Source: Terriglobia bacterium (lineage in GTDB: Bacteria > Acidobacteriota > Thermoanaerobaculia > Thermoanaerobaculales > Thermoanaerobaculaceae). From it: a stretch of DNA of 64,000 nucleotides. The position numbers and the translations under genes are program-made. The stretch lies in assembly GCA_020073245.1 (NCBI GenBank), contig JAIQFQ010000014.1:1-64000 (forward strand), written 5' to 3'. The notes under the pieces are model-generated. The model was not told the origin of the DNA and did not search any database. It worked only from the letters and a program-made list of their open reading frames with translations. Below, one piece after another: positions 58,920 to 61,106 of this stretch (position 1 is its first letter; each line of letters begins with the position of its first letter).

Positions 58920-59174
58920 ATGACCACGGTGCCTTTGTCGGAAGCGAAGACCCACCTCGCGCGCCTGCTCGCGGAGGTCGAGAACCTCGGCGAGGGCGTG
59001 ACGATCACGAGGTCCGGCCGCCCCGCCGGCGTGCTCCTGTCGATCGACGAGTACGAGGGGTTGATCGAGACGCTTGACATCCTGGCGGACGGAAAGCTGA
59101 TGACCTCGCTGCGCAAGGGCCTGCGCGACGCGGAGGCAGGGCGCACCGCCGGGGACGACGAGGTCTGGCGGTGA
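58920..59174 (+). CDS. Phd/YefM-type antitoxin
   Basis: 84 residues. TTVPLSEAKTHLARLLAEVE and GVTITRSGRPAGVLLSIDEY are the Phd/YefM DNA-binding fold with its characteristic 'RxGrPxaVLls-x-eEY' region. The C-terminal half should bind and neutralise the toxin. GGAGGG lies upstream. The stop overlaps the toxin start as GTGA. Confidence 0.93.
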   Translation: MTTVPLSEAKTHLARLLAEVENLGEGVTITRSGRPAGVLLSIDEYEGLIETLDILADGKLMTSLRKGLRDAEAGRTAGDDEVWR

Positions 59175-59446
59175 CGTGGGAGTTGCGGTACACCCAGACG
59201 GCGGCGAGGGCGATCCGGAAGCTCGACCCCCAGATCAAGGCCAGGGTCCGCGCCGCTCTCGACGCGCTACGTGAGGACCCGCAACGCGGCAAGCCCCTTC
59301 AGCTCACGCTCAAGGGGCTGTACTCCTGGCGCACCGGCGACTGGCGCATCGTCTACCGCATCGAGGCCGAACGCATCGAGATCCTCGTCGTCACCGTCGG
59401 CCACCGCCGCGAGGTCTACGAGCGCGTCCGCGAGCTCCTCCGCTAG
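59171..59446 (+). CDS. RelE/ParE-superfamily toxin
   Basis: 91 residues from GTG 59171. ELRYTQTAARAIRKLDPQIK, LKGLYSWRTGDWRIVYRIEA and VVTVGHRREVYER match RelE-type mRNA interferases: the Arg in WRTGDWRIVYR and the C-terminal His-Arg-x-x-x-Tyr are RelE-like. It forms a type II module with the overlapping antitoxin. Confidence 0.93.
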   Translation: MTWELRYTQTAARAIRKLDPQIKARVRAALDALREDPQRGKPLQLTLKGLYSWRTGDWRIVYRIEAERIEILVVTVGHRREVYERVRELLR

Positions 59447-59544
59447 CTGTCGGTTTCGCACCCAACACTTCAGCTACTTGCGTGCCAGGCACTTCCTCTG
59501 CTTCGCCCACAGGGCATCACAAGAAGGTGAGATAGTGATACCTC

Positions 59545-59560
59545 TATGAGTAGGTCGGTC
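59545..59560. repeat. Left terminal inverted repeat of the IS element
   Basis: TATGAGTAGGTCGGTC; the exact reverse complement of 60945-60960. It lies 1 nt inside the flank segment GTGATACCT. Confidence 0.88.
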
Positions 59561-59840
59561 GAGTCAAGCCTAGCCTCCTCCCCTCGGTGAGTCGTTGATC
59601 TGCCGTGGCCTCGGTTGGAAGCGTGCGCCGCGCATCAACCGTCTATTCGCACTCGTCATGGCTATCTGCAGCCGCCGGTGCATGCTTGGGTTCGGTGAGG
59701 CGGGGGGCGCTCCCATCAGGTACGCGAGCTGACGAGCGCGACTCGGCTCGCTGCCCCAGGTATCACACGGAGTCGCCCCACCGATGCAGTGCGCCACGTT
59801 GCTCACCCTCCGAGGTCGGTCTCTTTCGCCTCCTTCCATC
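59561..59840 (-). ncRNA. Candidate bridge RNA of the IS1111-type element
   Basis: 280 nt downstream of the transposase with no gene. On the minus strand, a stem (GGGGCG-A-CUCC at 59779-59769 with GGAGCGCCCC at 59713-59704) encloses an internal loop. Its 5' side reads GTGATACCT (59766-59758) and its 3' side GTACCTGAT (59723-59715), separated by a 10-bp hairpin (GCGAGC and CGAG arms, 59724-59751). The first segment is identical to the left flank (59535-59543). The second is the reverse complement of the right flank (60963-60971). This is the target-loop design of IS110 bridge RNAs. GAGACCGACCTC at 59823-59812 matches the element ends and may be a donor guide. Confidence 0.68.
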
Positions 59841-60866
59841 TCATGCGGCTGCAGCGATCTCCGGCCGCAGAGCCTGGTAATCCTCGCCTGTCACCCACAG
59901 CCGGTGCAGGAGCACGGCCAGCTTGCGGGCCAGCGCCACCACCGCCTTCTTCTTGCCGATCCGCCCGGCCAGCTGCTCGGCCCAGCGCTTGAGCTCCGTC
60001 TCCTGGCGGCTGCGCAGACAGCCGTGCGCAGCCTGGACGAGCAGCCGGCGCATCTCGCCGTCACCGTGCCGGGTGATGGACCCGAAGTGCGAGCGCTCCG
60101 CCGACTCGCGCATCCGGGGCCGCAGGCCGAGGAAGCTCGCGACATCGCGACTGGTGCGGAATCGGCTCGGGTCCTCGATGCACAGCACGTAGGAGAGGGC
60201 GACCAGCGGTCCGATCCCCGGCACCTGCTGGAAGCGCGCCACCTCCGGAAACGACCGCTCCACCTCCGCCACCTCGCCGTCGAGCGCCCGGACCTTCTCG
60301 TCGAGCTCGAGGGCGGTGGCGACCAACGGCGCCACCAGGGCGCACAACTCCTCGGGCACCTTCCCGGTGGTCAAGGCCCGGGCCAAGCGCTCCGGCCGCC
60401 GGCCTGGCACGCGGTAGCCGAACGAGCGCAGCAGTCCGCTGCTGGTATTCAGGCAGGCGGTCCGGCTGTTGACCAGGGTGCGGCGCACCCGCAGCATCCC
60501 CCGCAGCCGTTGGGTCTCCTCGCGGCGATGCCGGATCGGGCAGAGCAGCGCCGGGTCCATGCGCACCAGCCTGGCCAGCGCCTCCGCGTCCACCCGGTCG
60601 TTCTTCAAGGTGCTCTCCGCAATCAGCCGCACCCGCTGGGCGTTGGCCACGATGACCTCGTGGCCGAGCCCTGCCAAGATTCGCCCGACCCAGGGCGAGA
60701 GCCCCGACGCTTCGATGCAGATGCGCATCGGCGCCCGACCCCCGAACCACCGCACGAACGACCTCTCGGTGGTTGGGATCTTGGCGAGCTCGCTGGTCTC
60801 GCCGGACTCCTCCACCACGCAGACCTCACTCGACTTCAGGTGTAGGTCAATGCCACAATTCTCCAC
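59841..60866 (-). CDS. IS110/IS1111-family transposase (DEDD recombinase)
   Basis: 341 residues from GTG 60866. N-terminal RuvC-like DEDD domain with Asp7 (CGIDLHL), Glu52 (CIEASG), Asp90 and Asp93 (LKNDRVDAEALARL). The C-terminal Tnp domain has QVPGIGPLVALSYVL (HhH-like), VASFLGLRPRMRES and FGSITRHGDGEMRRLLVQAA with the conserved Ser. Full length, no frameshift, so possibly active. It recombines DNA guided by the element's own RNA in related systems. Confidence 0.95.
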   Translation of the reverse strand: MENCGIDLHLKSSEVCVVEESGETSELAKIPTTERSFVRWFGGRAPMRICIEASGLSPWVGRILAGLGHEVIVANAQRVRLIAESTLKNDRVDAEALARLVRMDPALLCPIRHRREETQRLRGMLRVRRTLVNSRTACLNTSSGLLRSFGYRVPGRRPERLARALTTGKVPEELCALVAPLVATALELDEKVRALDGEVAEVERSFPEVARFQQVPGIGPLVALSYVLCIEDPSRFRTSRDVASFLGLRPRMRESAERSHFGSITRHGDGEMRRLLVQAAHGCLRSRQETELKRWAEQLAGRIGKKKAVVALARKLAVLLHRLWVTGEDYQALRPEIAAAA

Positions 60867-60944
60867 GGTCGGTCTCCCTTCGTCCTTGGGCCTCGAGCCC
60901 GTACGGGTTATATGGCGAGCTCTACGCTACGCCGCAAACCGGGA

Positions 60945-60960
60945 GACCGACCTACTCATA
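60945..60960. repeat. Right terminal inverted repeat of the IS element
   Basis: GACCGACCTACTCATA; the reverse complement of 59545-59560. Its inner part, GGGAGACCGACC (60941-60952), also pairs perfectly with GGTCGGTCTCCC at 60867-60878, so the region before the transposase start can fold into a 12-bp hairpin. Confidence 0.88.
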
Positions 60961-61106
60961 CAATCAGGTACCGATGCGGTTTCGCGGCGTTCGTGGCGCT
61001 TGTCGTGGCCGGAACGCGCAGGCGACCGGTACTCGCCGTCCTGGTCTCAGCCAGCGCGCTCGTTCAGGACTCGTTTATGGGCCCTGCGTTCTGGTCTTCT
61101 CCGCGC

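What the first reader, a model, noticed from the sequence alone, without database searches (positions are those of the whole stretch)
59531..60975. Bridge-RNA-like target loop whose two guides match both flanks of its own insertion site
The 280-bp non-coding end of this IS1111-type element folds into a stem (59769-59779 with 59704-59713) with an internal loop. On the RNA strand the 5' side of the loop reads GTGATACCT, identical to the left flank (59535-59543, one base from the terminal repeat). The 3' side reads GTACCTGAT, the exact reverse complement of the right flank (60963-60971, two bases from the other repeat). The segments lie on opposite sides of the loop and match opposite DNA strands, as in the target-binding loop of IS110-family bridge RNAs. 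Two specific 9-nt matches in the right places are very unlikely by chance. The terminal repeats define the element ends independently.
Basis: partly seen in the sequence, partly recalled or inferred. Interest (0 to 1): 0.9.

Follow-up and report, generated by a model that had tools for sequence, protein, structure and literature searches.

The report
RNA-guided IS1111 element with readable target
This is a jumping gene of a known kind (IS1111 group of the IS110 family) that carries a small guide RNA; comparison with dozens of related copies and with unoccupied sites shows that the RNA spells out both the insertion site and the element's own ends, as known bridge/seek RNAs do.

Summary
The element (about 59543-60966) encodes a 341-aa IS110-family DEDD transposase on the minus strand, 15-bp subterminal inverted repeats and a 280-nt downstream non-coding region: an IS1111-group insertion sequence. 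Two loop segments match the two flanks; no shuffle of 20,000 gave both 9-nt matches. The decisive test is across copies. In 24 relatives with distinct guides, the 5' loop side matches the reverse complement of the copy's own right flank; the 3' side matches its own left flank (16 with both ends). Swapping flanks never did as well (0/100,000 each); wrong-strand, wrong-side and distal controls lacked the signal. The enclosing stem covaries. A second loop tracks both element ends, so the RNA is bispecific. Unoccupied sites exist: a genus-wide dispersed repeat GGTACCNNGTATCACC. A relative inserted seven times in one genome sits in a REP-like palindrome found about 160 times there, at the sequence predicted by joining its flanks. 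The mechanism was published in 2024; this is a well-supported new member.

The parts
59543..60966 (-). IS1111-group insertion sequence; ends set by the 3-bp (AGA) / 7-bp (TGATTGT) extensions outside the repeats, uncertain by 1 nt
59841..60866 (-). 341-aa IS110-family DEDD transposase/recombinase gene (GTG start)
   Evidence: PF01548, PF02371; NF033542
60945..60959 (.). subterminal inverted repeat at the transposase-start end
59546..59560 (.). subterminal inverted repeat at the non-coding end
59638..59788 (-). bridge/seek RNA region (covariance model R1, 102 bits)
   Evidence: transcription inferred
59769..59779 (-). 5' arm of the stem that encloses the target loop
59704..59714 (-). 3' arm of the stem that encloses the target loop
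59758..59766 (-). 5' target guide GTGATACCT (pairs with the right half of the target, transposase orientation)
59715..59723 (-). 3' target guide GTACCTGAT (same sequence as the left half of the target plus the element's first bases)
59682..59693 (-). donor loop, 5' side (GAACCCAAGCAT), matches the reverse complement of the left element end
   Evidence: weaker in the window copy: 4 of 6
59640..59647 (-). donor loop, 3' side (AATAGACG), matches the right element end CATAGAGG
59535..59542 (.). target half (GTGATACC) next to the non-coding end
60967..60972 (.). target half (GGTACC) next to the transposase-start end
59562..59567 (-). TTGACT, conserved -35-like box 22-23 nt from the repeat end; would form a junction promoter in the circular form (inferred)

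Best explanation
An IS1111-group insertion sequence whose downstream non-coding region encodes a bispecific guide RNA (bridge RNA / seekRNA). Inferred mechanism: the element excises as a circle, and the abutted ends make a promoter that transcribes the transposase and the RNA. The RNA binds the recombinase. Its first loop pairs with the two strands of the target GGTACC-NN-GTATCACC, and its second loop pairs with the joined element ends. The recombinase then exchanges strands at a short core (AG in relatives). Shown here: anatomy, covarying structure, guide-flank and guide-end covariation, unoccupied target sites, site-specific recurrence. Inferred: transcription, RNP formation, circle, catalysis.
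For: Transposase family. Conserved repeats and end extensions in relatives. 5' side against own right flank: mean longest match 7.75 nt, versus 3.46 for other copies' flanks, 0/100,000 permutations, n=24. 3' side against own left flank, with the 7-nt element extension left out: 4.56 versus 3.03, 0/100,000, n=16. Five controls without comparable signal. Stem: 95.5% of cells paired versus 84.6% in shuffles, 74 double-sided changes versus 27 expected. Donor loop: 0/20,000 permutations on both sides. Unoccupied target repeat in all nine genomes of the genus, 64 sites against 3 for the reversed pattern. Joined flanks align across the join to an unoccupied locus beside relE in G009. G364: seven copies in one palindromic repeat, and the predicted joined target (up to 2 mismatches) occurs 163 times with 0 control hits. 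-35-like TTGAC at constant distance in 14 of 14.
Against: No RNA or transposition data. A free fold of the whole 298-nt region is no better than shuffles, and the 83-nt loop region is only modestly better (z -1.5). Four of 24 relatives match their right flank by only 3-4 nt. The core dinucleotide is not cleanly defined for the window copy (TG on one side, AG or GG on the other). The transposase has SA where most relatives have the SG motif. Related sequences are not fully independent in the permutation tests.
Confidence: 0.95

Rival explanations
1. The loop/flank matches are chance or composition.
For: Only 9 nt each in one copy; G+C-rich sequence.
Against: 0 of 20,000 shuffles give both; the pattern recurs with different sequences in 24 distinct-guide relatives.
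Confidence: 0.01
2. The matching flank bases belong to the element (its true ends lie further out), so the match is internal symmetry and not target recognition.
For: Left flanks GTACCTGATTG recur next to several truncated copies; the final TGAT lies within the 7-bp extension.
Against: The same sequence occurs without any element, as a dispersed repeat in all nine genomes of the genus, and the corresponding target about 160 times in G364; flanks differ between relatives in step with the guides even when the 7-nt extension is left out.
Confidence: 0.03
3. The covarying stem-loop is a transcription terminator or mRNA stability element, and guides are incidental.
For: It lies directly downstream of the transposase gene.
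Against: The loop sides are highly variable and track the flanks; a second loop tracks the element ends; terminators need neither.
Confidence: 0.01

Closest known systems
IS1111-family seekRNA systems (ISEc11, ISPa11, ISKpn4, ISPst6; PMC11187229)
   Same: Downstream non-coding region, subterminal repeats with 7/3 (or 6/3) bp extensions, 330-350 aa DEDD transposase, top-strand guide 5' of bottom-strand guide, overlapping matches; ISPa11 likewise targets REP repeats.
   Different: Different target (GGTACC-NN-GTATCACC, a genus-specific dispersed repeat); no experiment here.
IS621 / IS110-group bridge RNA (PMC11208160)
   Same: One RNA with a target loop and a donor loop, each with two guides on opposite loop sides reading opposite strands around a short core.
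   Different: The RNA lies downstream, not upstream, of the transposase; guide order reversed; long subterminal repeats; sequence similarity to IS621 protein only in the C-terminal half.
IS elements that insert in REP sequences (PMC1525189; ISPpu9, PMC8450116)
   Same: Insertion in dispersed, often palindromic repeats.
   Different: Here the guide that specifies the repeat can be read.

Membership tests
IS110 family | DEDD (RuvC-like) N-terminal domain plus Transposase_20 domain | tested here: met
   both Pfam domains above cut-off; NF033542, 240 bits against cut-off 140
IS110 family | Conserved serine in the G--P----SG motif | tested here: inconclusive
   window has GLRPRMRESA (serine kept, G replaced by A, as in L089); most other relatives have SG
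IS1111 group | Subterminal inverted repeats of about 7-17 bp with short asymmetric extensions (7/3 or 6/3 bp) | tested here: met
   15-bp repeats; unoccupied sites imply 9 bp of extension in total
IS1111 group | Long non-coding region downstream of the transposase gene | tested here: met
   280 nt downstream against about 80 nt upstream inside the repeats
IS1111 group | Top-strand guide located 5' of bottom-strand guide | tested here: met
   definition
bridge RNA / seekRNA | Guide segments co-vary with target across elements | tested here: met
   0/100,000 permutations on both sides
bridge RNA / seekRNA | Second loop co-varies with the element's own ends (donor guides) | tested here: met
   0/20,000 on both sides; weaker on one side in the window copy
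bridge RNA / seekRNA | RNA is transcribed, binds the recombinase and is needed for transposition | not testable with these tools
   no expression data
bridge RNA / seekRNA | Circular intermediate with a junction promoter | tested here: inconclusive
   conserved TTGAC 22-23 nt from the end in 14 of 14 copies; -10 and circle not shown
Rfam families | Match to a curated RNA family | tested here: not met
   nothing near a gathering score

The most novel reading that the evidence does not exclude
A phylum-wide clade of IS1111 elements keeps re-fitting its target guides to whatever short dispersed repeat is abundant in its current host (the GGTACC repeat here, a REP-like palindrome in G364). Guide evolution would then follow host repeat evolution, with the repeats acting as safe harbours for the element.
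Probability: 0.4. Interest if true: 0.45.

Novelty: new member of a known kind. Interest (0 to 1): 0.33.

Why it matters
It independently confirms, from sequence alone and in bacteria far from the model systems, that IS1111 RNAs read both target and donor. It also adds about two dozen naturally programmed guide/target pairs with AG-type cores, an unoccupied-site catalogue and a covariance model, which are useful raw material for bridge-recombinase engineering. It does not change the understanding of the mechanism.

Tried and rejected
A first guess of an AT core (target GGTACCTG-AT-CACC) came from one site in C25. It was dropped because other sites in the genus have two more bases and relatives lack an AT at that position on the right. 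A protein-based scan of viral contigs found nothing. Rfam gave nothing. Minimum-energy folding of the whole region was uninformative; only comparative structure settled it.

Full report
Observation. All the stated sequences are present. Read in transposase orientation (minus strand), the element is CGGTACC|TGATTGT-ATGAGTAGGTCGGTC ... transposase ... non-coding region ... GACCGACCTACTCAT-AGA|GGTATCACTATCTCACC. The RNA-strand loop has GTGATACCT on its 5' side and GTACCTGAT on its 3' side, inside the stem GGGGCGACTCC/GGGAGCGCCCC. In 20,000 dinucleotide-preserving shuffles of the 280-nt region, 54 matched the right flank by 9 nt, 63 matched the left flank, and none matched both.

What it is. The 341-aa protein is an IS110-family DEDD transposase, with solved relatives IS621 and ISCro4 by sequence. 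Long subterminal repeats, a downstream non-coding region, protein length and guide order place it in the IS1111 group as defined in PMC11187229 and PMC11208160. Its own genome holds several partial copies. One of them (C12) has the same guides, a different inner hairpin and a right flank from the same target repeat.

Covariation with flanks. Relatives found by protein search (about 40-55% transposase identity for the full copies), and more found with a covariance model, keep the repeats and the constant end bases but have different loop segments and different flanks. Examples: L097 CCGTAGAGAT with AAGACGCCC, L100 GGTTTCAGAT with AAGCGGCGCG, L094 GTGCCAGAT with AACCCACTT, L219 GCCGCAGAT with AGCAGGTCTT. 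With guides taken from fixed model columns, the 5' side matched the reverse complement of the copy's own right flank by a mean of 7.75 nt, against 3.46 nt for other copies' flanks (n=24 distinct guides; 0 of 100,000 permutations). The 3' side matched the own left flank by 4.56 against 3.03 nt with the 7-nt element extension left out (n=16; 0 of 100,000). Same-strand, opposite-side and distal-flank controls showed no comparable signal. Four of 24 show only weak right-flank matches (L092, L096, L212, L216).

Structure and donor loop. The enclosing stem and a second helix keep 95.5% standard pairs over 43 distinct sequences, with 74 double-sided changes (27 expected), and sliding the partner abolishes the signal. 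The second helix (GCAC/GTGC) carries side segments that track the element ends. The 3' side reads ATAGAAG in elements ending CTCATAGAAG and ATGGAAG in elements ending CTCATGGAAG. The 5' side reads CCCAT, CTCA, CCAA or CCTTA in step with left ends GATGGG, GATGAG, GATTGG and GATAAGG. Permutation gave 0 of 20,000 on each side; part of this signal is shared by descent.

Target and core. The target exists without the element. GGTACC-NN-GTATCACC (one mismatch allowed) occurs in all nine genomes of the genus, 64 sites against 3 for the reversed pattern, as part of a short dispersed repeat ATC-GGTACC-NN-GTATCACC-ATCTCACCTT. Joining the window's host flanks gives a sequence that aligns across the join to an unoccupied site beside the same relE gene in G009, with one extra base. 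This fits 9 bp of extension in total, the occasional 6/3 form. In G364, seven copies with identical RNA all sit in GCGGCTT(C/T)|AGCCGCTGAGG with unrelated outer sequence, and the joined target with up to two mismatches occurs 163 times there (20 of the listed places exact; 0 reversed-pattern controls), often as facing pairs like REP/BIME repeats. In these relatives AG is a consistent shared core; in the window copy the core is TG on one side and AG (or GG) on the other, so it is left open.

Expression. TTGAC lies 22-23 nt from the outer end of the repeat in 14 of 14 copies examined, as expected if the joined ends of a circle make a promoter. This step, RNA production and catalysis are inferred from the published systems.

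Taxon. Genome names are withheld. A same-order genome contains a contig of the same length (9305) and match as a Thermoanaerobaculales MAG contig, so the host is probably an acidobacterium (inference).

Verdict. Confirmed, well supported, and a new member of a known kind.

Noticed in passing
L086 (G000:C64) about 2856-2990: A roughly 110-bp sTIR-flanked miniature derivative: the left-end segment of the element, inverted, with repeats at both ends and sitting in the same target (GGTACCTGATTGC ... AGAGGCATCACC). Only one full copy was found in the genus.
   Followed up: partly
L088 (G000:C25), L176, L177, L178, L179: Many remnants keep only the left end plus the first 40-70 transposase codons. 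One in C25 is followed directly by the target repeat (GGTACCCGATCACC), as if the rest had been deleted.
   Followed up: partly
window 59465-59540 and L103-L172: Genus-wide short dispersed repeat ATCGGTACCNNGTATCACCATCTCACCTTCTTG, often preceded by further ATCGGTACC units and sometimes followed about 50 nt on by GCCTGGCACGCAAGTAGC. Origin and function unknown.
   Followed up: partly
L246-L275 (G364): About 160 copies of a REP-like palindrome GCGGCTTTAGCCGCTGAG, often in facing pairs about 34 bp apart, dense at 5.2-5.83 Mb in the part of the list shown.
   Followed up: no
window 58920-59446: A RelB/RelE-like toxin-antitoxin pair (named from sequence by eye) lies directly beside the insertion site; the relE-like gene has matches in G007, G009 and G012.
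   Followed up: no
window 59841-60866: Transposase has SA in place of the SG motif in the C-terminal domain, shared with its nearest full relative L089, while most other relatives have SG.
   Followed up: partly
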